IMG/VR virus record: IMGVR_UViG_3300044998_000209
Span: 1 to 42,792 of that record
Length of the DNA: 42,792 nt
Reading direction: 5' to 3' (one strand)
DNA from: a virus
In this document: positions 2,122 to 41,601 of the stretch, one piece after another
Layout of the letters: each line of letters opens with the position of its first letter
Position numbering within the stretch: position 1 is the first letter of the stretch
The notes under the pieces: generated by a model
Seen by the model: only the letters and a program-made list of their open reading frames with translations
Told to the model about the DNA's origin: nothing
Database searches by the model: none
Program-made: the position numbers and the translations under genes

Positions 2122-3135
2122 ATGGCACTACAATTCATGGAAGGATTTGACCACTACACCACCGGGCAAGCCGGACGGAAGTGGACAACTGTCGTCGGTA
2201 ATGGTGCGATTGTCGCGCCGGGCCGGTTCGGTGGACAGGCGTGGCAGTTTAACAATGTCGGCACCACCAGCTATTTGGAACAGAACCTTACCGCGCGGGA
2301 CACATTCATTCTTGGGGTGGCGCTTCAGATCGGATACGGTGACGCAACGACGCCGATCATTCGATTCATGGACGACAACAACGATCAGGTTGACATTCGT
2401 GTCACATCAACCGCCGGGTTTCAGTTCACCCGCAACGGCACGCCATTGGGCACGACAATTGACAACGTGATCGCGTTCGGGTACTACAACTACATCGAAG
2501 CGAAAGTGTTAGTCGATAACACTGTCGGCTACATTCAATTGCGGGTGAACGGTGCGGAAGTTTTGAACGTTCCGGCGCTGGACACCCAAGCGACAGCGAA
2601 TGCCCGGATCAACAAGATTCGATTCCAGCCGTTCTCCAACAGTGGTTCGTATGACATGCGGTTGGACGACATCTACATCTTGGACGACACAGGCACTTTC
2701 GATAACGCATTCCTTGGTGAGTGCCGCATCGAAACCAAGTTTCCGTCTGCCAACGGCGCGTTTGTCGAATTCTCTCCGGTGGGCGCGGGGACGAATTATC
2801 AGTGCGTGGACGAAACGACCAGCAATGAAGACACTGACTACACACAAGGAAACGTCGTAGGAAACCGAGATTTGTACACAGTTTCGACCTATAGCTTCGT
2901 GGGTCAAGTCTATGGAGTTCAGGTCACAGTCACACACCGGAAAGACGACGTAGGTAATCGTATTGTGGCACCGCTGGCGCGGGTCAACAGTACGTTGTAT
3001 GAGGGATCACAAGATACGTGTTTGAGCCAATACAAGATGGCGAAGAAGATTTGGGAGAAGAACCCGAACACGAACACACAATGGACCGTAGCTGACGTGA
3101 ACGCGGGACAGTACGGAATTATCGTCAAGGGATAA
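2122..3135 (+). CDS. LamG/concanavalin-like virion protein, copy 1
   Basis: 337 residues with Shine-Dalgarno GAGGT before ATG. It starts MALQFMEGFDHY, then FGGQAWQF and a beta-sandwich pattern ending in RLDDIYILDD near residues 180-190, typical of LamG/concanavalin A-like folds in phage adhesion proteins. The C-terminal third (FLGECRIET.FPS, THRKDDVGNR, IWE.NP.T...WT..DVNAGQYGI) is a conserved tail-protein segment. It is clearly paralogous to the next gene, which shares the GFDHY start and the HRKDDVG block. Probable role: carbohydrate binding at the cell surface. Confidence 0.65.
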   Translation: MALQFMEGFDHYTTGQAGRKWTTVVGNGAIVAPGRFGGQAWQFNNVGTTSYLEQNLTARDTFILGVALQIGYGDATTPIIRFMDDNNDQVDIRVTSTAGFQFTRNGTPLGTTIDNVIAFGYYNYIEAKVLVDNTVGYIQLRVNGAEVLNVPALDTQATANARINKIRFQPFSNSGSYDMRLDDIYILDDTGTFDNAFLGECRIETKFPSANGAFVEFSPVGAGTNYQCVDETTSNEDTDYTQGNVVGNRDLYTVSTYSFVGQVYGVQVTVTHRKDDVGNRIVAPLARVNSTLYEGSQDTCLSQYKMAKKIWEKNPNTNTQWTVADVNAGQYGIIVKG

Positions 3136-3141
3136 GCAACA

Positions 3142-4260
3142 ATGGCTCTACTCTTCATGGATGGTTTCGACCATTACAACTACAACGGCACAGCACAGAA
3201 GAAATGGGACAATCCGATTGCCTTCAGTGGATACACAACAGGTGCTTCGTCTGGTCGTTTCGGTACGGGTGGAGCCAGCCCGAATGGTTCAGGAAATCTC
3301 TTTTGCGCACAGTGGGCGGGGATGAACAAAACATTCGTTTGGACGCCCACACCACCGACCGAACTCATCATCGGTTTCGCTGCCAAGTTTAATTTCACTT
3401 CAGAGACGCACCCGTTCCTTCAGATCCTTGGCGACAACGGTAGACCCCAAGTTCAGTTTTGGTTAGATGCGGTTGGCGGCGACATCAAGTTGGTGCTGGC
3501 CGATCCAGCCGCGCTTGCCGTACCAGCCATTGATACTGCCTTCCCACCGGGGACGCTGATCGCCAACACAGGTTTCGTTCCGCCGATTGGACTGTGGTTC
3601 TATTTCGAAACGAAGATCCTCTTCAGCACCGGCTCAAGTGGCCGCATTGATATCCAGCTAGACTCCACTCCGTTTGTCAGCTACACCAGCATCAAGACCG
3701 CCAACGTCGGCACGACGTACTTCAAGGGATGGCGGCTCACGGGACTGGAACAGTTCAGTTCCGGTTTCACTATCGACGATCTCTACATTGCGGACAACCT
3801 TCCGGGGAACATCACAGACTTCGTGGGAGAAGTTCGCGTTCAGACCATGTACCCGGATGCTGAAGGATTCCAGAACGACTTCTATCCTTCTACCGGCACC
3901 AACAACGCGACGAACGTCAACTTGGCCCGGACGAATTGGGTGGAGACGACACCGACCGCCAAGTACAACTTTTCCGGTACGATCAACGCAATTGATCTGT
4001 ACAGCATCGGCAACTACACCATCGCCGGTACGATCTTCGGCGTTCAGGCAAATCTATCGCACCGCAAGGACGACGTAGGCGCGCGCCGTGTGGCACCGAT
4101 CCTTCGGACAGGTGGAAACATCTACGTCGGGAACAACGTGCCGCAATACTCCGACTATACGTGGGCCGGGCACATTTGGGAAGAGAATCCAGCGCTGGCG
4201 CTACCGTGGACGCTCACGGAATTGAATCAGGCAGAATTCGGCATCAAGATCGTCAGCTAG
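3142..4260 (+). CDS. LamG/concanavalin-like virion protein, copy 2
   Basis: 372 residues, starting 6 nt after the previous stop. It repeats the architecture of its neighbour: MALLFMDGFDHY, RFGTGGASPNG, a sandwich core ending TIDDLYIADN, then FVGEVRVQT.YPDAEG, SHRKDDVGARRVAP and WTLTELNQAEFGI. The similarity runs over the full length, so this is a tandem duplication with divergence in the central lectin-like half. It is the last gene before a strong terminator. Confidence 0.65.
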   Translation: MALLFMDGFDHYNYNGTAQKKWDNPIAFSGYTTGASSGRFGTGGASPNGSGNLFCAQWAGMNKTFVWTPTPPTELIIGFAAKFNFTSETHPFLQILGDNGRPQVQFWLDAVGGDIKLVLADPAALAVPAIDTAFPPGTLIANTGFVPPIGLWFYFETKILFSTGSSGRIDIQLDSTPFVSYTSIKTANVGTTYFKGWRLTGLEQFSSGFTIDDLYIADNLPGNITDFVGEVRVQTMYPDAEGFQNDFYPSTGTNNATNVNLARTNWVETTPTAKYNFSGTINAIDLYSIGNYTIAGTIFGVQANLSHRKDDVGARRVAPILRTGGNIYVGNNVPQYSDYTWAGHIWEENPALALPWTLTELNQAEFGIKIVS

Positions 4261-4269
4261 AAGACCGAC

Positions 4270-4479
4270 AAAACACAAGCGGCTTGCCATCATCATGATT
4301 GGTGGCAAGCCGCTTTTGCGTGCCCGAACCGAAGTCTCAGGAGCATTCCTTGACGAAATGCTGTCCGCTGTGTCCCGGACCTTCTTTGTATCCTAATAGA
4401 CCTTTGAGCTTGTGGCCCTACTATGGCCGGTTCAGTTTGAACAGATGATCGCGACCCGGAATCGTCTTCAACTGCTCAC
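4270..4479 (-). ncRNA. putative orphan non-coding RNA
   Basis: The 276-nt gap between two fibre genes has no credible ORF, but on the minus strand it carries a consensus promoter (TTGACA, 17 nt, TATAAT) and a strong terminator about 200 nt downstream. The only starts near the predicted +1 give ATG-TGA or GTG followed by two codons and a stop. The RNA would contain several hairpins: GTTCA-AAC-TGAAC, GGCC-7nt-GGCC, GCATT-9nt-AATGC, then the terminator. I do not recognise a known family. Ends are estimated from the promoter and the terminator. Confidence 0.6.
4277..4317. terminator. strong, probably bidirectional rho-independent terminator
   Basis: A perfect 12-bp stem (AGCGGCTTGCCA at 4278-4289 with TGGCAAGCCGCT at 4303-4314) is followed by TTT on the plus strand. 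On the minus strand the stem is followed by TGTGTTTTG. It ends both the plus-strand LamG pair and the minus-strand RNA. Confidence 0.85.
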
Positions 4480-4485
4480 ATTTTC

Positions 4486-4514
4486 ATTATAGGGGAACGA
4501 TCACCCTCTGTCAA
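4486..4514 (-). promoter_or_regulatory. consensus sigma70-type promoter (minus strand)
   Basis: Read on the minus strand: TTGACA (4514-4509), 17-nt spacer, TATAAT (4491-4486), predicted start near 4479. Both hexamers match consensus exactly, the best promoter in the window, yet no ORF follows. Confidence 0.8.
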
Positions 4515-4520
4515 TCCCTT

Positions 4521-4528
4521 CTAAATAC
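4521..4528 (+). promoter_or_regulatory. T4-type late promoter element
   Basis: CTAAATAC ends 8 nt before ATG 4537. It restarts late transcription after the terminator at 4277-4317. Confidence 0.65.
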
Positions 4529-4536
4529 TTTCCGAA

Positions 4537-5421
4537 ATGAGCCTTCAATACGCAACTGGAACCAACGTCCATGCTACGGTCGCGGCGGACAACAAAACCA
4601 CTCTGATCGGGAATATCCAAACCCAACTCACGACCGCCGGATGGTCGGTGGTTTCGGGTGGCGGCACCAACGACGTAAAAATGGCGTGCGCGGCGACTCC
4701 ACAAGGAAATCAGATCCGCGTGCGTATTTGGGACGCGGGCGGCAACTGTGTTCGCATCCGGGTGATGAACGTCGCGGAAACCATTGTGATGACGGACAGC
4801 GGGTATCTTCTTCCCGCTACCAGCAAGACTTTCATCATCAACGCCACGCGGCACCAGTTCGCTATTTGGTGCGCCGGTTCGGACAGCACACGCGACTTCG
4901 TGATGGTGTCAGCAATGTACATTCCCACTCACCTGACCGGAATCACCACGCTGGCCTTCTTGATGAGCCAGTCGGTATCGGACACTGACACAGTAGATCG
5001 CGGGAGCTTCCGGGTTAGCACTTCATTGCGTCATCCGGGCAACGGTTTCAACGGGAACTTTTTCGGGTTGGTGAACAGCACCGTGATGGAGCATGTAGGC
5101 GACGGAACCACGACGGCACGTCAAGGTGTGCCGGGACTGCTCTTGCCGCGCCCGGCGGACAGCACCACGACGCCACAGCAAGCGATGTGGCACGACTCAT
5201 CTTCCTTCATTCTCGAACCGCTGATGGGTTGGGGCCTTTCGGACATCAATGACCCGTGGCGGGTGTATGGGCAACTCTGGAACGCGGCGGTGAACACGGA
5301 AGCCTTCACGATGGATTTGGTCCCGACTGCTTTCAATGGAAAGAACTGGATCAATTTGACCAGCAACAACGTCGGCAACAACTATTCGGCGCGCGGAAGC
5401 CTGTTCCTGACCACTCCGTAA
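4537..5421 (+). CDS. virion protein, fibre family A (short form)
   Basis: 294 residues. It is a member of a four-gene paralogous family in this block (others start at 6235, 7457 and 8720). Shared landmarks in order: I...E/QTQL..AGW..(I/V)SG.GT, M..A.TPQG...R.RI.D.GN.C....I.N, W/F..I.A...Q.., then a QLW(N/D)A block and a C-terminal ARGSL. This copy lacks the ~110-residue N-terminal domain of the other three, so it represents the core module. No enzyme motif is seen. Probable role: surface-exposed fibre or decoration protein. Confidence 0.6.
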   Translation: MSLQYATGTNVHATVAADNKTTLIGNIQTQLTTAGWSVVSGGGTNDVKMACAATPQGNQIRVRIWDAGGNCVRIRVMNVAETIVMTDSGYLLPATSKTFIINATRHQFAIWCAGSDSTRDFVMVSAMYIPTHLTGITTLAFLMSQSVSDTDTVDRGSFRVSTSLRHPGNGFNGNFFGLVNSTVMEHVGDGTTTARQGVPGLLLPRPADSTTTPQQAMWHDSSSFILEPLMGWGLSDINDPWRVYGQLWNAAVNTEAFTMDLVPTAFNGKNWINLTSNNVGNNYSARGSLFLTTP

Positions 5422-11731: not shown

Positions 11732-12709
11732 ATGGCGAACCCAAATACTTCAACATTCCCGTATGCGATCCCTACGGATTCCATCCTTATGGTCGCTTCG
11801 GACAATGCGCAATCTCCACTCACGGCGGATATCGACGACACCCAAACTTCGATTCCTGTCAGCGATGGTTCGGTGTTTGAAACGCCGTGTCTCATCGGGA
11901 TTGACGACGAAATCATCTCCGTGGCCGGGCGAAGTGGCAACAACTTGACTCCGTGCATTCGTGGTGTCAGCGGCACCACTGCTGTCGCACATACTGACAA
12001 CACCCCTGTATTGGGATACATCTTCGCCTACCATCACAACCAAGTCGCAGCGGAGATTCAATCACTCAGCGGATTCACTTTCCAAAATGCCATGCGCGGA
12101 TTGGATCGTCTGGAAAATCTGCTCACCTACAGCGAAGCCTTTGAAAATGTCGCGTGGAACAAGTACACCGGCACGACGGTACCGGCCACCAACATCGCGG
12201 CACCGAACGGCACAAATACGGGGCGGCGTCTTTTGGAAGGAAGCGGATCGGGGCGGCACGGCGTCGGGGCAACTTACAGTACTCTGGCAGACGGAACGGC
12301 TATTGTCATTAGCGTTTACGCCAAAAAACAGTCGCTCGATTGGATTTGCATCGGACAAAACATCAACGGTGAAACTGGTCGCCGGGCATGGTTCAACATC
12401 AACACCGGAACAGTAGGCACGGTCGGAGCCAGCGCAAAGGCCACGATTGTGAATGTCGGCAATGGATGGTATCGGTGCTTGGTAGAAACCACACAGACAA
12501 CCAACGTCACCAAGACGTTTGATATCGTCATGACCACAAGCGACGGCACAGTGACCTATAACGGATCGGCGACCAACGCGAACTATTTTTGGGGAGCACA
12601 AGTCCGGCAAGGCACCATGAACGAGAAACAACAATACGTGGTCACCAGCGGCACCACGGTATCAGTACAACAGGGCGGCATCGTCCTAGATGAAGGGGAT
12701 CTGAGCTAA
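11732..12709 (+). CDS. tail fibre protein: shared N-terminal module plus lectin-like domain
   Basis: 325 residues. Residues 1-~115 match the N-terminal module of the protein at 1045 (NPNT..FP..IPTD, VAS, PCLIGIDDEI, GYIFAYHHNQVAAEIQSL). The second half starts NLLTYSEAFENVAWNK and continues APNGTNTGRRLLEGSG, VISVYAKKQ, GNGWYRC, NANYFWGAQVRQG, a common carbohydrate-binding-like domain in phage tail fibres. One virion attachment module thus carries two different distal domains in this genome. The stop overlaps the next ATG by one base. Confidence 0.65.
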   Translation: MANPNTSTFPYAIPTDSILMVASDNAQSPLTADIDDTQTSIPVSDGSVFETPCLIGIDDEIISVAGRSGNNLTPCIRGVSGTTAVAHTDNTPVLGYIFAYHHNQVAAEIQSLSGFTFQNAMRGLDRLENLLTYSEAFENVAWNKYTGTTVPATNIAAPNGTNTGRRLLEGSGSGRHGVGATYSTLADGTAIVISVYAKKQSLDWICIGQNINGETGRRAWFNINTGTVGTVGASAKATIVNVGNGWYRCLVETTQTTNVTKTFDIVMTTSDGTVTYNGSATNANYFWGAQVRQGTMNEKQQYVVTSGTTVSVQQGGIVLDEGDLS

Positions 12710-14355
12710 TGGGCGTACCAATTCAACGGCGCGGTGGCACCACCGCCGAACATTCGAGCTTCACGGGCAAACAACGTGAAGTGACCATTGACACGACGAA
12801 ATGGACAGTCGTAGTTCATGATGGTTCGACGCTTGGTGGATATCCATTGGCGAAGGAAAACCACGTTCACGGCAATGCCTCACCCGTTGTGGCGGGGTTC
12901 ATGTCAGCTTCGGACAAATCGAAACTGGACGATCTACCGGCCAGCGTGGTGTATCAACAAGTCCAAACGAACAGCACGCCGGGACCGGCGCGGGCCGCTC
13001 TGAATTTTGCGCCAGCCTTCGCGGTAACGGACGACAATGCCGGTAACAAAACAACCGTTGATCTCAGCGATCTTGGAATTTCCCCGGCTCAATACACGAA
13101 GGTCACTGTCAATGCTCAAGGCCGGGTGACCGCCGCAACAGTTCTATCGGCGGCGGACATCCCAAGCCTGACATCGGCTAAGATCACTGATTTCAATGCG
13201 ACGGTTCAGACCAACCGGATTGACCAATTGACGGCACCCACGGGATCTGTCAATCTGAACACACAGAAGATCATCAACCTGTTGGACCCGACGAATCCAC
13301 AAGACGCGGCAACGAAGGCGTATGTGGATTCCGCGCGCGTTGGTTTGGAGTTCAAAGAATCAGTTCGGGCCGCATCTACAGCGAACATCAACCTGACCTT
13401 GCCGGGCACCACAATTGACGGCGTTACGCTTGTCAACGGTGATCGGATCTTGCTCAAGGATCAGACCACCACGTCACAGAACGGCATCTATGTGTTTGCT
13501 GGACCGTCCACACCACTCAGCCGGGCGGCGGACTCTAACACCAGCGATGAAATGCTGCCGGGCACGTTCGTCTTGGTCACGGAAGGATCTGTCAATGGCG
13601 ACACTGCATGGGTCCTTGCTACTGATGCGCCGATCACCTTGGACACCACCGGACTCGATTGGGTCCAGTTCTCCGGGGCGAACAATGTGGCGGCGGGCGA
13701 TGGTCTTTCGAAAGTCGGCAACACCCTCAGCGTTCGCACGGCCAATGCCAGCCGCATCGTCGTCGGTGGGAGTGGCGTCGATCTGGCGACAACGGGCGTC
13801 GGAGCGGGCACGTACAACACCCTGACGGTAGATGTCTACGGACGCATCACCACCGCGTCCAATACGGCATATCAGGCTCAGAACACGCTACTGACCAACT
13901 TCGTGGGATTGGGGTCGTCTATCGGCATCGTGGCGAAGACGGCTACCAGCACCGTAGCGACGCGCACATTGACGGCGGGCACAGGTATCAGCATCACCAA
14001 CGGCGATGGCGTCAGCGGCGATCCTACCATCGCACAGACGGCGGATACGGTCGTCCAGCGTTTGCGGCTGTCCAAGGGCGGAACACTGGTCGGCACCCGG
14101 CGCGAACTGAACTTCATTGACGGCACCGGCATCAGCATTGATGTGGTGGACGACACCCCGACGAATCGCACGAACGTGACAATCAATCAGACCGGCGGCG
14201 TTTCCTCAAGCGCACAGTTCGTCTGTCTGGCGAACGATGGAACACTTTCCAATGAACGTGTGTTGACCGCCGGTACCGGGATCAGCATCACTGACGGCGG
14301 CGCGGGCAATAACGTCACGGTCGCAATCGTTCAGGACCTTGGCGCGGTACCATAA
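12709..14355 (+). CDS. long tail fibre-like protein
   Basis: 548 residues. The N-terminus (VPIQRRGGTTAEHSSF, then DTTKWTVVVHDGST) is the common fibre start seen in Mtd-like and many T4-like fibres. GFMSASDKSKLDDL follows near residue 65. Middle region: RVTAATVLSAADIP, LDPTNPQDAATKAYVDSA, then VRAASTANINL, IDGVTLVNGDRILLKDQT, QNGIYVFAG, ATDAPITLDTTGLDWVQFSG, a domain frequent in cyanophage and other T4-like fibres. The C-terminus has short beta repeats (LTAGTGISIT.GDG), typical of trimeric fibre shafts. Probable distal host-recognition fibre. Confidence 0.75.
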   Translation: MGVPIQRRGGTTAEHSSFTGKQREVTIDTTKWTVVVHDGSTLGGYPLAKENHVHGNASPVVAGFMSASDKSKLDDLPASVVYQQVQTNSTPGPARAALNFAPAFAVTDDNAGNKTTVDLSDLGISPAQYTKVTVNAQGRVTAATVLSAADIPSLTSAKITDFNATVQTNRIDQLTAPTGSVNLNTQKIINLLDPTNPQDAATKAYVDSARVGLEFKESVRAASTANINLTLPGTTIDGVTLVNGDRILLKDQTTTSQNGIYVFAGPSTPLSRAADSNTSDEMLPGTFVLVTEGSVNGDTAWVLATDAPITLDTTGLDWVQFSGANNVAAGDGLSKVGNTLSVRTANASRIVVGGSGVDLATTGVGAGTYNTLTVDVYGRITTASNTAYQAQNTLLTNFVGLGSSIGIVAKTATSTVATRTLTAGTGISITNGDGVSGDPTIAQTADTVVQRLRLSKGGTLVGTRRELNFIDGTGISIDVVDDTPTNRTNVTINQTGGVSSSAQFVCLANDGTLSNERVLTAGTGISITDGGAGNNVTVAIVQDLGAVP

Positions 14356-33518: not shown

Positions 33519-33597
33519 TGGTAGCGGGAGTGGGAGTTGAACCCACCTAATACCAGCTTATGAGACTGGTGTGTGCATCCGGCTCAGCTTTCCCGCA
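33519..33597 (-). tRNA. tRNA-Met (CAU anticodon)
   Basis: Minus strand. Acceptor GCGGGA pairs with TCCCGC, encoded CCA at 33521-33519, T arm GTGGG-TTCAACT-CCCAC, anticodon arm CCAGT-CTCATAA-GCTGG. Position 1-72 is a T-T mismatch, as in initiators, but the anticodon stem lacks the three G-C pairs of initiator tRNA. The D stem is weak. A modified Ile-tRNA (lysidine type) is an alternative. Confidence 0.8.
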
Positions 33598-33614
33598 TCA
33601 GTTCTTATATAGTA

Positions 33615-33782
33615 TCACAGCTTCTTGATCTCATCGATCAGCGCTTGACCGTGGCGCACATCGTCGGCACAGGATGAGCATCCGAAGTAGTGCTCTTCAA
33701 ACTCACCCGCCAGCGGCTCTGGCAATTCCCTTAACAGGTACCGTTCGACAAGTCCGCCGGACACTACGTCTTCGTGTGACAT
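33615..33782 (-). CDS. anti-sigma-factor-like zinc finger protein
   Basis: 55 residues from ATG 33782 (MSHEDVV), which sits 7 nt after a -10 TACAAT; longer in-frame starts exist. LVERYLLRELPEPLAGEFEE then HYFGCSSCADDVR has the H-x3-C-x2-C motif and helical context of zinc-binding anti-sigma (zf-HC2/ZAS) domains. Such domains bind and inactivate ECF-type sigma factors. A phage copy could redirect host RNA polymerase. The 3' end of the gene at 33703-33966 overlaps it. Confidence 0.6.
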   Translation of the reverse strand: MSHEDVVSGGLVERYLLRELPEPLAGEFEEHYFGCSSCADDVRHGQALIDEIKKL

Positions 33783-33966
33783 GTTCATCATTGTACACGA
33801 ATAGGGGAACCCCGGCAATCAAAATGATCGCCGCCATCAGGCCGATCAGCCACGATTGGTACATGGTCACGACAACCATGAGTGCCACCCATACCCCATA
33901 AATGGCCTTCTGGTGCGTCGGACGGGTCCGGGCGATATGAGCGTAGGCGGCGTGAATCGAGTTCAT
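33703..33966 (-). CDS. small membrane protein
   Basis: 87 residues. Two hydrophobic segments (~24-38 GVWVALMVVVTMY, ~40-57 LIGLMAAIILIAGVPLFV), then an Arg-rich C-terminus that overlaps the anti-sigma-like gene by 80 nt in another frame. AGAGG lies 7-8 nt before ATG. The overlap means the last third may be shaped by the other gene. Function unknown. Confidence 0.5.
   Translation of the reverse strand: MNSIHAAYAHIARTRPTHQKAIYGVWVALMVVVTMYQSWLIGLMAAIILIAGVPLFVYNDEHVTRRRSVRRTCRTVPVKGIARAAGG
33790..33818 (-). promoter_or_regulatory. sigma70-like promoter for the zinc-finger gene
   Basis: Minus strand TTGCCG (33818-33813), 17-nt spacer, TACAAT (33795-33790), 7 nt to ATG. Confidence 0.6.
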
Positions 33967-33987
33967 CTGACAACCTCTATGGGTTGT

Positions 33988-34278
33988 TTATACGCGCGGA
34001 AGCCAGATGTCTTCCATGATCGACAAATACCGGGTCCGTTCTTCTTCCGTCAACGGTGGTCGATTTGGATCAACCATCTTGGCGCGATGATCGGCGATGA
34101 TCTTTTTCAAGTACTCTTGCGCGTTGCCTGTGAATGGCCGATGACCGGTTATCAAAATGCCCGGCGGAAACGGTTTGACTTCCGGGTGCGCGGCCAGAAA
34201 CCTCTTCGTATAGCTTTCACAGCCAACCGAAGAGAATACCCCGGCAATCACAGCGAAGAAGGATCGACGATTCATCAT
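33988..34278 (-). CDS. exported hypothetical protein
   Basis: 96 residues (a second ATG follows directly). MNRRSFFAVIAGVFSSVGC is a short signal-like N-terminus with Arg pair and a possible but poor lipobox ending at Cys. The mature part (ILITGHRPFTGNAQEYLKKIIADHRAKM, LTEEERTRYLSIMEDIW) is helical and unrecognised. CTAAACTA, overlapping the upstream stop, lies 5 nt before the ATG. Confidence 0.55.
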   Translation of the reverse strand: MMNRRSFFAVIAGVFSSVGCESYTKRFLAAHPEVKPFPPGILITGHRPFTGNAQEYLKKIIADHRAKMVDPNRPPLTEEERTRYLSIMEDIWLPRV

Positions 34279-34282
34279 GACA

Positions 34283-34705
34283 CTAGTTTAGCGGCACTCG
34301 AACGAACTTCGTTTCCGTGGCGATGTTCGGTGTCGCCGGAACCAGCGTGTACACCTTCGTCGAACCGTCAGCGTAGCGGAACCGCATCATTTCCAGCCCG
34401 GCGCAACTGATGTTCGGCGTTGGATTCGGAACCGGATCTTTGCACACACCCCATTCCACCACCTGTGGAATCTTCGGCGACCGTTGATCGGTGCCGATCT
34501 GTGTTTGCGCCCACGCATACCCGGCGATGAGGAAAGCTGCCACAACCGGAATCACAGACTTCCGGTGCAATTCAGCCATACATTGCATCCATTGACGTTC
34601 GATCCGGCGGCGGGCCAGCACTTCCCCGGCGTATGCCAATGCCAACGTCAACGCAATCAAACTGACGATTACGAAACCCGAATGCCATACCCATAAAGGA
34701 ATCAT
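34283..34705 (-). CDS. membrane/exported hypothetical protein
   Basis: 140 residues from ATG 34705, chosen because TATTAT lies 7 nt upstream and TTGAAG 17 nt further; upstream in-frame starts exist at 34741. Hydrophobic segments at ~8-28 (GFVIVSLIALTLALAYAG) and ~52-68 (VIPVVAAFLIAGYAWA) are followed by a soluble domain with two cysteines (GVCKDP, ISCAGLEMMRFRY), probably periplasmic. Function unknown. Confidence 0.55.
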   Translation of the reverse strand: MIPLWVWHSGFVIVSLIALTLALAYAGEVLARRRIERQWMQCMAELHRKSVIPVVAAFLIAGYAWAQTQIGTDQRSPKIPQVVEWGVCKDPVPNPTPNISCAGLEMMRFRYADGSTKVYTLVPATPNIATETKFVRVPLN

Positions 34706-34712
34706 ACCCCGC

Positions 34713-34741
34713 ATAATAACAGATCCCGACCAGCCCTTCAA
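34713..34741 (-). promoter_or_regulatory. sigma70-like promoter
   Basis: Minus strand TTGAAG (34741-34736), 17-nt spacer, TATTAT (34718-34713), 7 nt to ATG 34705. Confidence 0.6.
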
Positions 34742-34751
34742 CCTTAGAGAG

Positions 34752-34781
34752 TTTTTGGTACCAATCCGTGCGGTCTACAAT
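34752..34781 (+). promoter_or_regulatory. possible clpP promoter
   Basis: TACAAT at 34776-34781, 8 nt before ATG 34790. The -35 is poor (TTTTTG at 34752, 18-nt spacer). The site is divergent from the promoter at 34713-34741. Confidence 0.4.
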
Positions 34782-34789
34782 ACCAGTAC

Positions 34790-35383
34790 ATGCACAACAC
34801 ACTCATCCCGATGGTCGTGGAACAGTCCCCGCGCGGCGAACGTTCCTACGACATCTACTCCCGTCTTCTCAAAGAACACATCATCTTCCTTGGCACTGCG
34901 ATTGATGACGACGTTGCCAATCTGGTCGTCGCACAGCTTCTCTTCCTTGCGGCGGAAGACCCGGACAAGGACATCAGCATGTACATCAATTCGCCGGGCG
35001 GATCGATCACGGCGGGCCTTGCCATTCTCGATACGATGAATCTGGTCAAGCCCGACATCGTGACCTATTGCGTCGGTCAGGCCGCTTCAATGGGCGCTGT
35101 GTTACTGGCGAACGGTGCCAAGGGTAAGCGCTTCGCTTTGCCGCACGCACGCATCCTGATCCACCAGCCGTTGATGCGCGGACTCAGCGGACAGGCCAGC
35201 GACATCGACATCCACGCCAAGGAAATCTTGCGCATGCGCGAAATCCTCAACGGCATCTTGGCAACCAAGACCGGCCAGCCGCTCGAAAAGATCAGCGCGG
35301 ACGTGGACCGCGACTACATCTTGGAAGCGGACGCGGCGGTCAAGTACGGCCTTGTCGATAAGGTGATTGAGAAACAGCCGTGA
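34790..35383 (+). CDS. clpP: ATP-dependent Clp protease proteolytic subunit
   Basis: 197 residues, full ClpP length. [20 protein letters not shown] start, [30 protein letters not shown] with nucleophile Ser100, RILIHQPL with His125 and the DVDRD block with Asp175 give a complete catalytic triad; [15 protein letters not shown] is the usual ending. It would form a barrel with a Clp/Hsp100 unfoldase, which must come from the host or elsewhere in the phage. Possible uses: degradation of host regulators or of tmRNA-tagged peptides. Stop overlaps the next ATG by one base. Confidence 0.95.
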
Positions 35384-35634
35384 TGACAAGACAGGCTTTT
35401 TTCATCACCCTTCTGACACCTTTTGTTGCGGCGGCATGCCGGACATTGGGTTTGACTTTGCCCGCTTGGGCGCGTCCCAAACCACACCCGGATGCGGTTC
35501 TCATTTCGTTGATCCGCCGGGCGATGCCGAAATTGGTTGCAGCGAACATTTGTGGCGTGCAACCGATGACTGGTCCGACCGGGTTGATCTTCGCAATGAA
35601 AGCCCACTACGAAAAACAAAAAGCCCCGGCATGA
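35383..35634 (+). CDS. small secreted-type protein carrying a major-capsid 'Gol' segment
   Basis: 83 residues from ATG 35383, which overlaps the clpP stop (TGATG); GTG 35380 is an alternative. Residues 1-~28 are signal-like (TRQAFFITLLTPFVAAACR). Residues ~38-78 match the T4 gp23 capsid segment: IRRAMPKLVA, NICGVQPMTGPTG and LIFAMKAHYEK against gp23 VRRAIPNLIA, DICGVQPMNSPTG and QVFALRAVYGK (gp23 from memory; 21 of 34 residues identical from the Arg pair on). In T4 this segment is the Gol peptide (about residues 93-122) that triggers the Lit protease. Nothing else of a capsid protein is present. Confidence 0.7.
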   Translation: MTRQAFFITLLTPFVAAACRTLGLTLPAWARPKPHPDAVLISLIRRAMPKLVAANICGVQPMTGPTGLIFAMKAHYEKQKAPA

Positions 35635-35646
35635 CCGGGGCTTTCG
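35619..35646 (+). terminator. terminator enclosing the stop codon
   Basis: AAAGCCCCGG (35620-35629) pairs with CCGGGGCTTT (35635-35644); the TGA of the Gol-like gene is in the loop. It may also serve the convergent minus-strand gene. Confidence 0.85.
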
Positions 35647-35647
35647 T

Positions 35648-36118
35648 TTATTCAACCATCGGAAGGGGAGCCGGTGGTACGAAGTCGGTATCGACTTGCA
35701 ATCCGTAGTCGCCCGGCGCGACATCGTGAATCGAACCGGTGATCGTTGTGGGATTCGCCATCACGATCTGGCCGGTTTCTCCGTTGATCTCATACGTGAA
35801 ATCAAGAGCCGCTGTGCCCGACCCGGACACATAGGACAGATCCACGGTGTCTACCCCAATATCAATGGAAATCGTCGGCACACCAACCACAAGCACCGGT
35901 TCGCTGAACTGAACACGGAGACGGATGGTATCTCCGTCTTGGTAGGTTCCCTTGTTGTTGACGATATGAGCGCTTCGAATGACCGCCGCGCCGGTACGAC
36001 GATCCAGCGATCCGATGGTCACCAGAACTTCACCGGTGTCAGGATTCACCCATCCCTTTGGGGTCGCAATCGCGTTGGGTGCCCACGATGGCGGATTCGA
36101 TAGATTCCACAATGCCAT
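35648..36118 (-). CDS. Ig-like virion protein
   Basis: 156 residues. MALWNLSNPPSWAPNAIATPKGWV then NPDTGEVLVTI is a conserved N-terminal tag in T4-like structural proteins. GTYQDGDTIRLRVQFSEPVLV with ISIDIGVDTVDLSYVSGSGT is a bacterial Ig-like beta sandwich, as in phage decoration proteins. The strong late motif CTAAATAC 4 nt upstream of the ATG supports a virion role. Function likely surface binding. Confidence 0.65.
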   Translation of the reverse strand: MALWNLSNPPSWAPNAIATPKGWVNPDTGEVLVTIGSLDRRTGAAVIRSAHIVNNKGTYQDGDTIRLRVQFSEPVLVVGVPTISIDIGVDTVDLSYVSGSGTAALDFTYEINGETGQIVMANPTTITGSIHDVAPGDYGLQVDTDFVPPAPLPMVE

Positions 36119-36122
36119 GTGG

Positions 36123-36130
36123 GTATTTAG
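36123..36130 (-). promoter_or_regulatory. T4-type late promoter element
   Basis: Minus strand CTAAATAC, 4 nt before ATG 36118. Confidence 0.7.
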
Positions 36131-36145
36131 GCCCGAACGCGAAGC

Positions 36146-36153
36146 CTAAATCT
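36146..36153 (+). promoter_or_regulatory. late-like promoter element
   Basis: CTAAATCT, 4 nt before GTG 36158. Confidence 0.45.
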
Positions 36154-36157
36154 TGGC

Positions 36158-36901
36158 GTGACCAGATCCCAAGCGGGGCGGCTAGGTGCCGCCATCACAG
36201 CACATCGTTTTCGTCAACAAGCAATCACATCATACAATGAGTCACCCAACCGTTGCCTTCATTGTGATGAAGTGATTCATGTACCAGAAGGCGGTCGCGT
36301 TGCGGAAACCAGAAAAAAGAAGTTCTGCAATCAATCGTGCGCGGCCAGATACAATAACGTGCGACGGGCAGACAAAACACCCACGTGCATTGTGTGCGGC
36401 AAAGATGTCAAAAAGGGAACGAATGAATTCTGTTCTGGTCGCTGCCACAAAAATCATCTGTACAATGAATTCATTCAACGGTGGAAGAATGGATTGGAAG
36501 ATGGTATCAAAGGCGGCGGTATGTCGATCAGTCAAACTATCCGCCGATACCTGTTCGAGAAGAAAGGCCTGGCGTGTTGGAAGTGCGGATGGTGTCAAAT
36601 CAATCCTGTCACACAACGGGTACCGTTACAAGTCAATCATATTGACGGCGACCCGCTGAACAACAAGGAAGAGAACCTTGAACTCATCTGCCCGAACTGT
36701 CATAGTGTCACTCCGACATTTGGAGCGCTCAATAAAGGAAAAGGTCGCGCAATTCGTCGTCAACGATATCATCAAAAGAATGGAGCACCCGATGGGACTC
36801 GAACCCATATTTCGCGAATACCAATCGCGGTTCCTGACCAGTTAGAAGACAGGTGCATGGCGGGACTGGCGGGGATCGAACCCGCGCCTTCTTCAACCTG
36901 A
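36158..36901 (+). CDS. HNH endonuclease, 3' end antisense to tRNA genes
   Basis: 247 codons from GTG 36158. Three cysteine pairs precede the nuclease: CLHCDEV, FCNQSC and CIVCGKDV/FCSGRC. The HNH core is QVNHIDGDPLNNKEENLELI followed by CPNCHS, with ACWKCGWC as a further zinc pair. This type is a free-standing homing endonuclease or intron-like element. The frame has no stop before 36901, so the last ~40 residues run antisense through tRNA-Thr(GGU) and into the next tRNA. Functional sequence probably ends around residue 205. Confidence 0.75.
   Translation: MTRSQAGRLGAAITAHRFRQQAITSYNESPNRCLHCDEVIHVPEGGRVAETRKKKFCNQSCAARYNNVRRADKTPTCIVCGKDVKKGTNEFCSGRCHKNHLYNEFIQRWKNGLEDGIKGGGMSISQTIRRYLFEKKGLACWKCGWCQINPVTQRVPLQVNHIDGDPLNNKEENLELICPNCHSVTPTFGALNKGKGRAIRRQRYHQKNGAPDGTRTHISRIPIAVPDQLEDRCMAGLAGIEPAPSST
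36781..36856 (-). tRNA. tRNA-Thr (GGU anticodon)
   Basis: Minus strand, 76 nt with encoded CCA. Acceptor GCACCTG/CGGGTGC, anticodon arm CGCGA-TTGGTAT-TCGCG, T arm ATGGG-TTCGAGT-CCCAT. Confidence 0.9.
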
Positions 36902-36948
36902 AGTGCTCTGACCGTCCGGGCGTCCCCGGCACTCTAAGCTACAGGCCC
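36858..36948 (-). tRNA. tRNA-like gene with hairpin inserted in the D loop
   Basis: Minus strand, 91 nt. Acceptor GGGCCTG/CAGTCCC (one C-T mismatch), T arm GCGGG-TTCGATC-CCCGC, CCA encoded. The D arm reads GCTTAGA...GGTCAGAGC with 19 extra nt (36932-36914) that form CCGGG-4nt-CCCGG. The anticodon arm CTTC-AGGTTGAA-GAAG has a non-standard 8-nt loop and I cannot assign an anticodon. Either an altered functional tRNA or a pseudogene. Confidence 0.6.
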
Positions 36949-36950
36949 GT

Positions 36951-37025
36951 TGGAGCCGAATGAGGGAGTTGAACCCTCTTCTCTGATTTACAAGACCAGC
37001 GCATCGCCATCAATGCTTATTCGGC
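36951..37025 (-). tRNA. tRNA-Thr (UGU anticodon)
   Basis: Minus strand, 75 nt. Acceptor GCCGAAT/ATTCGGC, anticodon arm CTGGT-CTTGTAA-ATCAG, T arm GAGGG-TTCAACT-CCCTC, CCA encoded. Confidence 0.9.
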
Positions 37026-37035
37026 GTGTTGTGTT

Positions 37036-37112
37036 TGGAGCCGGTGACGACAGATTGAAGTCGTGACTGTGGAGTACGAAACCACTATTTTTGCCACTTA
37101 AACTACACCGGC
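37036..37112 (-). tRNA. tRNA-Thr (CGU anticodon)
   Basis: Minus strand, 77 nt. Acceptor GCCGGTG/CACCGGC, anticodon arm GTGGT-TTCGTAC-TCCAC (T-T mismatch at the top pair), T stem ACGAC/GTCGT with an 8-nt loop, CCA encoded. The longer T loop is unusual. Confidence 0.75.
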
Positions 37113-37116
37113 ATGT

Positions 37117-37218
37117 TGGAGGGGAGAATTGGATTCGAACCAATGATAACCATCACAAAACGGCTGTTGCCAGCAAAAGGCATGCAACGGTGCCTTAACC
37201 AAGCTAGGCTATCTCCCC
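37117..37218 (-). tRNA. tRNA (Gln-like) with ~26-nt insertion in the anticodon arm
   Basis: Minus strand, 102 nt. Acceptor GGGGAGA/TCTCCCC, D arm GCC...GGTTAAGGC, T arm ATTGG-TTCGAAT-CCAAT, CCA encoded. The anticodon region reads CCGTT, then about 26 extra nt (37185-37160), then TTTTGT and GATGG. The extra segment repeats CCGTT at its end and holds a second hairpin TGCC-TTTTGCT-GGCA. Removing it leaves a Gln(UUG)-like arm; the anticodon is therefore uncertain. Confidence 0.6.
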
Positions 37219-37254
37219 AACGGGTCTGACATCCACAAACGTGAACGTCAAACT

Positions 37255-37332
37255 TGGCGGTCCTGACGGGATTCGAACCCGTGATCTTCACCGTGACAGG
37301 GTGACGGGGACGGCCAACTCCCCTACAAGACC
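37255..37332 (-). tRNA. tRNA-Asp (GUC anticodon)
   Basis: Minus strand, 78 nt. Acceptor GGTCTTG/CAGGACC, D stem GGGG/CCCC, anticodon arm TCACC-CTGTCAC-GGTGA, T arm ACGGG-TTCGAAT-CCCGT, CCA encoded. Confidence 0.9.
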
Positions 37333-37333
37333 G

Positions 37334-37407
37334 TGGCGGGGCATACGGGAATCGAACCCGTGGTACACCATAGACAGTGGTGCCGTTTGCCACTAACGAA
37401 ATGCCCC
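37334..37407 (-). tRNA. second tRNA with GUC anticodon (Asp-like)
   Basis: Minus strand, 74 nt. Acceptor GGGGCAT/ATGCCCC, D stem CGTT/AACG, anticodon arm CACCA-CTGTCTA-TGGTG, T arm ACGGG-TTCGATT-CCCGT, CCA encoded. Position 37 is T rather than a purine, so decoding identity is uncertain. Confidence 0.75.
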
Positions 37408-37427
37408 GAACTTGCGGAAGGAATGCA

Positions 37428-37547
37428 CGCTGGCCGATGTCGCTCCGACTGACCGTGGGAAACATCGACGTTAACCGTTCGCCCCACGACTACCGACTTT
37501 GGAGGAAGGTGCTCTTTCTTAAGCTAGAAAGTCGGCACCGGCCAGCG
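37428..37547 (-). ncRNA. structured RNA candidate 1 in tRNA cluster
   Basis: About 120 nt closed by a perfect 9-bp stem C-GCTGGCCG (minus 5' end, 37547-37539) with CGGCCAGCG (37436-37428). Inside, on the minus strand, GGTGC...GCACC encloses CTTTC-TAGCTTAA-GAAAG, and CGTGGG pairs with CCCACG. There is no tRNA T loop and no credible ORF. T4's tRNA cluster also carries two stable RNAs of unknown function; equivalence is speculative. Confidence 0.5.
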
Positions 37548-37579
37548 AAAATTATGGACAAGCAAGAGAGTACAGATCG

Positions 37580-37653
37580 ACTAAGAATTGGACTCGAACC
37601 AACTTCTCCGGGCTTTGCGGCCCGGCGCTTTAACCATGTTAAGCTACATCTCC
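37580..37653 (-). tRNA. degenerate tRNA-Cys-like gene
   Basis: Minus strand. D arm GCTT...AAAGC, stem CCGGGC/GCCCGG around CGCAAA (GCA anticodon context), T arm GTTGG-TTCGAGT-CCAAT. The 5' acceptor GGAGATG has no matching 3' strand and no CCA; position 33 is C not T. Probably a pseudo-tRNA. Confidence 0.45.
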
Positions 37654-37775
37654 GAAAGGTGGGGACAGATAACCAATCTGAGGCGGCTTGTCCTGAATTC
37701 AGTATGACACGAAGAAAGAGCCGTTCAAAGCAAGAATCCAACTCATCAGAAGCATCAAAGTGCCTGTCAAATGTC

Positions 37776-37886
37776 ACCGTACAGGTCTGACGGTCGCCCG
37801 GTTGCCCGGTAACGAAGCATTCCCCATAACACGGGGAAGACCGAACTTAGTAAGCCCGGCCATCTGTTGTAACCAGATAATCTTCC
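37776..37886 (-). ncRNA. structured RNA candidate 2 in tRNA cluster
   Basis: On the minus strand a chain of hairpins: ATCTG-GTTACAA-CAGAT, CCGGGC-TTACTAA-GTTCGG, TTCCCC-7nt-GGGGAA, CCGG-GCAA-CCGG (a GNRA loop only on this strand) and ACCGT-9nt-ACGGT. GGAAGA and TCTTCC can enclose the first two. Two G-U pairs in the second hairpin would be A-C on the plus strand, so the minus strand is favoured. Not a recognised family. Confidence 0.45.
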
Positions 37887-37949
37887 GACTTCGGCTTTGA
37901 ACGGCCCTGTCAAGAAGTACTTATACTTCGGCTTCGTGTCATGGAATCT

Positions 37950-38030
37950 TGGTGGAACACGTGGGAATCGAACCCACCTGAATATCCTCATTGCGAATGA
38001 GGCGACCACCCCCATGCAGTCCCGTGCCCC
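37950..38030 (-). tRNA. tRNA-Ala (CGC anticodon)
   Basis: Minus strand, 81 nt. Acceptor GGGGCAC/GTGTTCC, anticodon arm CCTCA-TTCGCAA-TGAGG, T arm GTGGG-TTCGATT-CCCAC, CCA encoded. Nearly identical outside the anticodon arm to the GGC tRNA at 38143-38222, so one arose by duplication. Confidence 0.85.
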
Positions 38031-38142
38031 GTTTTAGTGAACCGAGATTCCTTCCGCAAAAACTATTCGATTTTCAAAGAACAAAGACAGAGAAAACTTG
38101 CAATCGCACGACACAAGAAACTTGTAATCGCCCGTCTCTGTT

Positions 38143-38222
38143 TGGTGGAACACGTGGGAATCGAACCCACCTGAATATCTTCGATGCCATCGAAGCGGCC
38201 ACCCCATGCAGCCCCGTGCCCC
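38143..38222 (-). tRNA. tRNA-Ala (GGC anticodon)
   Basis: Minus strand, 80 nt. Same acceptor, T arm and 8-nt variable loop as the previous tRNA-Ala; anticodon arm CTTCG-ATGGCAT-CGAAG. Confidence 0.85.
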
Positions 38223-38229
38223 ATTTGTT

Positions 38230-38306
38230 TGGTGGACCGTGCCGGGATCGAACCGGCTACCTTCCGCTTGCAAGGCGGATGCTCTCCCAAAATGAGCTAA
38301 CGGCCC
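38230..38306 (-). tRNA. tRNA-Ala (UGC anticodon)
   Basis: Minus strand, 77 nt. Acceptor GGGCCGT/ACGGTCC, D arm GCTC...GAGC, anticodon arm TCCGC-CTTGCAA-GCGGA, T arm GCCGG-TTCGATC-CCGGC, CCA encoded. First tRNA of the cluster. Confidence 0.92.
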
Positions 38307-41306: not shown

Positions 41307-41601
41307 ATCTTGCGAAGGTCTTTCTTTAACAGGGCACCTTCAATTCCCCGGATGGGTGCAATTAAGCAGCCATCGCCAGAACATTGCTGTTGGCAGTTAT
41401 TGTTTTACGCTGTTGGTCCGAATCCGCTCATAAAACTTCATCGGCTTCGGTAGTCGTCTACCGGCCCGCTCCCTTTAGCTTTCCGCCGCCCGTCGAAACC
41501 TGACACCCCCGTATGGTGCCCCCTTGCGGGAGCGTGTTTTGGTGGAGGTGGCCGGAATTGAACCGGCGTCCGAACGTGGTCTACACCAGATCAACGCGAA
41601 C
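41285..41601 (-). ncRNA. ssrA: circularly permuted two-piece tmRNA
   Basis: Minus strand order is acceptor piece, spacer, coding piece, the reverse of standard tmRNA. Acceptor piece (~41601-41540): T arm GCCGG-TTCAATT-CCGGC preceded by TCGGAC, then CACCTCC, A, CCA. Spacer 41539-41511: hairpin GCTCCC-GCAA-GGGGGC. Coding piece from 41510: GGGGGTG-TCAGG-TTTCGACGGG, the tmRNA 5' signature; GGGGGTG pairs with CACCTCC to make the Ala acceptor stem. The tag frame follows at 41394-41362 and a terminator ends the gene. tmRNA frees stalled ribosomes and tags the peptide for Clp-type proteases. Late-like CTAAATTA (41614-41607) may be the promoter. Confidence 0.9.
41362..41394 (-). other. tmRNA tag reading frame
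   Basis: Resume codon GCC at 41394-41392 preceded by AATAACT (compare AATAGTC in E. coli tmRNA). Encodes ANSNVLAMAA then TAA. With the Ala from the charged tmRNA the tag is AANSNVLAMAA. It has the usual ending in Ala-Ala after a hydrophobic residue. Confidence 0.85.

What the first reader, a model, noticed from the sequence alone, without database searches (positions are those of the whole stretch)
4270..4514. Consensus promoter driving an ORF-less RNA inside the fibre block
Seen: minus-strand TTGACA-17-TATAAT, no ORF, and a 12-bp terminator hairpin ~200 nt downstream. This is the only promoter in the window with both hexamers perfect, suggesting strong transcription by host polymerase soon after entry. 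The orientation opposes all flanking genes. A structured RNA that titrates a host factor or regulates an mRNA is possible.
Basis: partly seen in the sequence, partly recalled or inferred. Interest (0 to 1): 0.78.

Follow-up and report, generated by a model that had tools for sequence, protein, structure and literature searches.

The report
Conserved phage noncoding RNA gene
A large T4-like phage carries, among its tail-fibre genes, a small gene for a structured RNA of about 210 bases that makes no protein, has a perfect bacterial promoter and is preserved in a related phage; it looks like a real regulatory RNA of an unlisted family, but its job is not yet known.

Summary
TTGACA-17-TATAAT (4514-4486, minus) is the only perfect sigma-70-type promoter in the window; none arose in 100 shuffles. 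A 13-bp terminator-like hairpin lies about 200 nt downstream, with no usable ORF between. This 276-bp gap is the only one over 24 bp among the genes of the first 14.9 kb. One related T4-like phage (three IMG/VR contigs) has the locus in the same place at 81% identity. There the promoter hexamers differ at 1 of 12 bases while the spacer differs at 10 of 17 (P = 0.008). Substitutions in the predicted stems mostly keep pairing on the minus strand and not significantly so on the plus strand outside the terminator. The frame is broken by indels, and no start codon is shared. No Rfam family fits, and nothing related was found elsewhere. I conclude that it is a genuine noncoding RNA gene. Early expression is inferred; the promoter lacks the TTGACATATANGTC box of the phage's own early promoters. 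Function is open. My best bet is a base-pairing regulator; the most plausible but unproven target is the start of the adjacent virion gene 3142-4260. Interest is moderate: a new RNA family within a known kind, phage sRNAs.

The parts
4486..4514 (-). Sigma-70-type promoter TTGACA-17-TATAAT
   Evidence: TTGACA-17-TACAAT at the same place in L003/L004/L005; hexamers 1/12 changed, spacer 10/17 changed, Fisher P = 0.008
4270..4480 (-). Predicted noncoding RNA, about 210 nt; start inferred at about 4479-4481, end at about 4270
   Evidence: Promoter and hairpin positions; fold z = -4.4; conserved in L005; pair-preserving changes
4438..4478 (-). 5' hairpin; contains a 26-nt stretch identical in both phages (GUUGAAGACGAUUCCGGGUCGCGAUC)
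4414..4428 (-). GGCC-[AUAGUAG]-GGCC hairpin; loop plus 3' arm is the candidate pairing seed
4403..4413 (-). Largely unpaired conserved stretch ACAAGCUCAAA
4324..4435 (-). Main branched domain closed by CUGAACC/GGUUCGG
4277..4315 (.). 13-bp terminator-like hairpin, U-rich on both sides, probably bidirectional; two compensatory pairs in the relative
   Evidence: Sequence
3142..4260 (+). Convergent neighbour, phrog_2448 family protein; its start codon region is the candidate pairing target
   Evidence: duplex test P = 0.03 and 0.02, uncorrected
4520..4527 (+). TCTAAATA, T4-late-promoter-like motif just upstream of gene 4537; kept in the relative
4537..5421 (+). Divergent neighbour, 294-aa protein without PHROG match, 95% identical in the relative

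Best explanation
This is a real noncoding RNA gene of a large T4-like myovirus. Shown by sequence and comparison: host-type promoter, structured ORF-less transcript on the minus strand, terminator hairpin, and conservation of promoter and pairing in one related phage. Inferred: host RNA polymerase makes about 210 nt of RNA from soon after entry, independently of whatever reads the TTGACATATANGTC box of the phage's other early promoters. Inferred, and my commitment on mechanism: it is a base-pairing regulatory RNA. The AUAGUAGGGCC hairpin loop and flank would pair with the first codons of the adjacent structural gene 3142-4260 (AUGGCUCUACUCUUCAUGG) and hold down its translation until late transcription takes over. 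Confidence is about 0.85 that it is a genuine RNA gene, about 0.5 that it acts by base pairing, and about 0.2 that gene 3142 is the target.
For: Unique perfect promoter. Only sizeable gap (276 bp, others at most 24 bp) in the first 14.9 kb. Same locus in the related phage. Hexamers kept while the spacer diverged, P = 0.008. Using each sequence's own fold, fewer pairs are broken than with permuted substitutions: minus core 2 against 6.3 expected (P = 0.007) and 2 against 6.1 (P = 0.011); plus core 4 against 5.9 (P = 0.18) and 4 against 5.2 (P = 0.32). Consensus fold: 62 pairs, 12 varying, none broken, 6 with changes on both sides; the 6 one-sided changes are G-U pairs on the minus strand and would be A-C mismatches on the plus strand. 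Gene 3142 is the only one of 11 neighbouring starts with P < 0.05 in both phages (0.03 and 0.02).
Against: Only two distinct sequences exist, so covariation is thin; six of the 12 varying pairs lie in the terminator, a short outer stem or a single isolated pair. The target test is uncorrected for 11 genes, the two phages are not independent, an unbiased scan gave P = 0.30 for this segment, and with accessibility gene 3142 ranks 12th of 61 in the window and 10th of 346 in the relative. The start of gene 3142 is no more conserved than other gene starts. No expression data.
Confidence: 0.6

Rival explanations
1. The RNA acts on a host factor: it titrates a host RNA-binding protein or mimics or sponges a host RNA, as AgvB does for GcvB.
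For: Host-type promoter; long identical stretches in partly exposed regions.
Against: The host is unknown; no Rfam family matched either version; four GTDB pattern hits are about what chance gives for 18 specified bases, and the covariance model scores them no higher than 15 bits. GGA motifs are not obviously enriched (hand count 3-4, about 2.5 expected).
Confidence: 0.25
2. The transcript has no function of its own: promoter and terminator act in cis, for example by transcriptional interference at the divergent promoter of gene 4537 or by opposing the convergent gene 3142.
For: The divergent promoter lies 5 bp from a late-promoter-like TCTAAATA; the hairpin is probably a shared bidirectional terminator.
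Against: Does not explain conserved blocks and pair-preserving substitutions in the interior of the RNA.
Confidence: 0.15
3. A small protein is encoded: the relative has a 62-codon minus-strand ORF beginning a few bases after the likely transcription start.
For: Open frame in L005 6150-6338.
Against: In the window the ATG is GCA with a stop just upstream and no other start; three indels (-1, +5, -1) shift the frame in the middle; no Pfam match.
Confidence: 0.05
4. Chance promoter in a leftover spacer, not a gene.
For: Only two distinct sequences; no wider conservation found.
Against: Promoter and structure kept at 82% background identity; only large gap in a compact block.
Confidence: 0.08

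Closest known systems
T4 RNAC and RNAD
   Same: Small noncoding RNAs of T4-type phages with unknown function (PMC9697503)
   Different: Classed as late RNAs in that paper; whether they resemble this RNA in sequence was not tested. This one has a host-type promoter and lies among fibre genes
Kayvirus vB_SauM-515A1 lncRNA2
   Same: Noncoding RNA of a large lytic phage driven by an early promoter, function unknown (PMC7698491)
   Different: 525 bp and next to tRNA genes; this one is about 210 nt and far from the tRNA cluster
Phage antisense-type regulators c4 (P1/P7), sar (P22), OOP (lambda)
   Same: Short phage RNAs that block expression of a phage mRNA by pairing with it, c4 and sar at or near the start of translation (PMC12197685)
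   Different: Target proven there, only a weak lead here; those are temperate phages controlling lysogeny
PAK_P4 antisense RNAs
   Same: RNAs of a lytic phage, one proposed to repress a late gene (PMC12197685)
   Different: Encoded opposite a gene; this one lies in a gap and would act at another site

Membership tests
Phage-encoded noncoding small RNA gene (general kind) | Own promoter | tested here: met
   kept in the relative
Phage-encoded noncoding small RNA gene (general kind) | Terminator hairpin | tested here: met
   13-bp stem with U-rich 3' side, compensatory pairs; outside the tool's loop limit
Phage-encoded noncoding small RNA gene (general kind) | No conserved ORF | tested here: met
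Phage-encoded noncoding small RNA gene (general kind) | Transcript detected in infected cells | not testable with these tools
   No expression data
Any Rfam family (including 6S, CsrB/RsmY-type and others) | Score above the family's gathering score | tested here: not met
Antisense-type phage regulator (c4/sar-like) | Complementarity to a phage mRNA start, conserved between phages | tested here: inconclusive
   Gene 3142: P = 0.03 and 0.02 uncorrected; not significant in the unbiased scan
T4 RNAC/RNAD | Sequence or structure similarity | not tested
   Their sequences were not compared
CsrA/RsmA-sponge RNA | Many GGA motifs in loops | tested here: not met
   Hand count: 4 in the window core, 3 in L005, about 2.5 expected

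The most novel reading that the evidence does not exclude
A lytic T4-type phage makes an RNA from a host promoter at the start of infection to hold down translation of a virion gene next to it, an RNA-level delay of late structural protein synthesis.
Probability: 0.12. Interest if true: 0.6.

Novelty: new member of a known kind. Interest (0 to 1): 0.42.

Why it matters
Few noncoding RNAs of lytic T4-type phages have been described, and those of T4 itself have no known function (PMC9697503). This one comes with clear boundaries, a host-type promoter and a natural comparison sequence, so it can be tested directly. If it controls a late structural gene or a host factor, it would add an RNA layer to the timing of lytic infection.

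Tried and rejected
Rfam match: none at gathering score, and weak hits differ between the two versions. Coding reading: rejected on lost start codon and frame-shifting indels. Plus-strand RNA or 5' leader of gene 4537: rejected as the main reading, because the plus core shows no significant pair preservation; the terminator hairpin alone makes the full plus-strand fold look preserved. Wider family: DNA patterns in viral contigs and in GTDB genomes, covariance model on 42 held sources and on 32 whole records gave only the window and the one relative. L046-L048 are chance matches in unrelated sequence. Relatives by head protein, a scaffold-like protein and large terminase gave no third version at this locus. 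Special conservation of the start of gene 3142 as support for pairing: not there, other starts are equally conserved. A PHROGs scan of the 62-aa frame failed because I gave a frame with stops in the same call and was not repeated.

Full report
What is in the sequence. On the minus strand a perfect TTGACA-17-TATAAT lies at 4514-4486. It is the only one in the window and no shuffle produced one. About 200 nt downstream lies a 13-bp hairpin (4277-4289 with 4303-4315) followed by GUGUUUUGU on the minus strand and by a short U run on the plus strand. Between them there is no credible ORF. The gap between genes 3142-4260 and 4537-5421 is 276 bp; every other gap among the genes up to 14.9 kb is 24 bp or less. 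The predicted RNA folds at -83 kcal/mol, z -4.4; without the terminator hairpin z is -2.9.

Where it lies. The window is a 42.8-kb virus record. Its genes include a small terminase subunit, tail tube, baseplate hub, a T4-type DNA end protector and fibre-like proteins. A tail protein is 27% identical to its best match, in Synechococcus phage BUCT-ZZ01, with Pelagibacter phages and Caulobacter phage Cr30 next. It is thus a divergent T4-like myovirus. Two relatives are long contigs of 224 and 184 kb that are 99.997% identical over 158 kb, so they are one phage.

Conservation. Three IMG/VR contigs carry the neighbour gene at 94% protein identity and the RNA locus at 81% DNA identity. They are identical to each other over the locus, so there are two distinct versions. 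The relative has TTGACA-17-TACAAT. The hexamers changed at 1 of 12 positions, the spacer at 10 of 17, P = 0.008. The conserved core includes a 26-nt identical stretch in the 5' hairpin and the stretch around GGCC-NNAGUAG-GGCC-ACAAGCUCAAA. Runs of this length also occur in coding regions, so they are not by themselves remarkable.

Structure. With the fold of one sequence alone, and the substitutions permuted among like bases as a null, the minus-strand core has 2 broken pairs against about 6 expected in either direction (P = 0.007 and 0.011). The plus-strand core has 4 against 5-6 (P = 0.18 and 0.32). The full plus-strand fold does look preserved, because it contains the terminator hairpin. In the consensus fold 12 of 62 pairs vary, none is broken and 6 change on both sides. 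That fold was derived from the same two sequences, so this count leans towards it. The six one-sided changes are G-U pairs on the minus strand and would be A-C on the plus strand. This favours an RNA made from the minus strand, as the promoter says.

Not a protein. The relative has a 62-codon frame near the 5' end. The window has GCA in place of its ATG and no other start, and indels of -1, +5 and -1 shift the frame in the middle. No Pfam family matched.

How widely found. Nothing else was found with three DNA patterns in viral contigs, one pattern in GTDB genomes, a covariance model on held loci and on 32 whole virus records, or blastn against phage records. The model rests on two close sequences, so distant relatives could be missed, and most records searched are fragments.

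Promoter class. The relative's genome has 16 exact copies of TTGACATATANGTC against none in a shuffled genome, mostly followed by a -10-like element and then by GGAGAGACGACATG-type gene starts. This looks like the phage's own early promoter class; its core is close to the palindrome TGACATATATGTCA, so it may also be an operator (inference). The RNA promoter lacks this box in both phages. It should therefore be read by host polymerase but not be subject to whatever acts on the box (inference).

Function. Duplex energies of the RNA with the starts of 11 neighbouring genes gave P < 0.05 in both phages only for the adjacent gene 3142-4260 (0.03 and 0.02). The core of the pairing is AGUAGGGCC of the hairpin with GGCUCUACU of codons 1-4; it is 9 bp in the window and 11 bp in the relative, counting G-U. 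This is uncorrected for 11 genes. An unbiased scan of the segment gave P = 0.30, and with accessibility the gene ranks 12th of 61 and 10th of 346. A second lead, ACAAGCUCA with UGAGCUAAUGG at the start of gene 12709, had P = 0.03 uncorrected but 0.38 and 0.08. I keep gene 3142 as the leading but unproven target.

Comparison. Phage RNAs that repress an mRNA by pairing are known (c4, sar, OOP, PAK_P4 antisense RNAs; PMC12197685). T4 has RNAC and RNAD, late and of unknown function (PMC9697503). A Kayvirus has an early-promoter noncoding RNA of unknown function (PMC7698491). This RNA belongs to the same broad kind and to no listed family.

Verdict. A genuine noncoding RNA gene is likely (about 0.85). 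Early timing is plausible and untested. Mechanism is open, with base pairing favoured.

Noticed in passing
window 41362-41601, minus: Permuted (two-piece) tmRNA gene in a phage, Rfam RF04321 at 108.6 bits; ARAGORN tag ANSNVLAMAA.
   Followed up: no
window 33519-38306, minus: Ten tRNA genes by ARAGORN, including three Thr, three Ala and two Asp, and one with a four-base anticodon call (gcaa) at 37579-37654.
   Followed up: no
L057-L068 (224-kb relative); window 41248 minus, 15398 plus, 15413 minus: Early-promoter-like class with extended box TTGACATATANGTC, near-palindromic, 16 exact copies against 0 in a shuffled genome; possible operator.
   Followed up: partly
window 4520, 11715, 39785 plus: TCTAAATA ending 9 bp upstream of an ATG, resembling a T4-type late promoter; the portal-like gene of the relative has one too.
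   Followed up: partly
window 12709-14355 plus: Protein with the N-terminal domain of the major tropism determinant (Pfam Mtd_N, E 1.9e-14); no reverse transcriptase (PF00078) found in the window or the relative.
   Followed up: partly
window 2122-3135 and 3142-4260 plus: Tandem paralogues of phrog_2448, function unknown.
   Followed up: no
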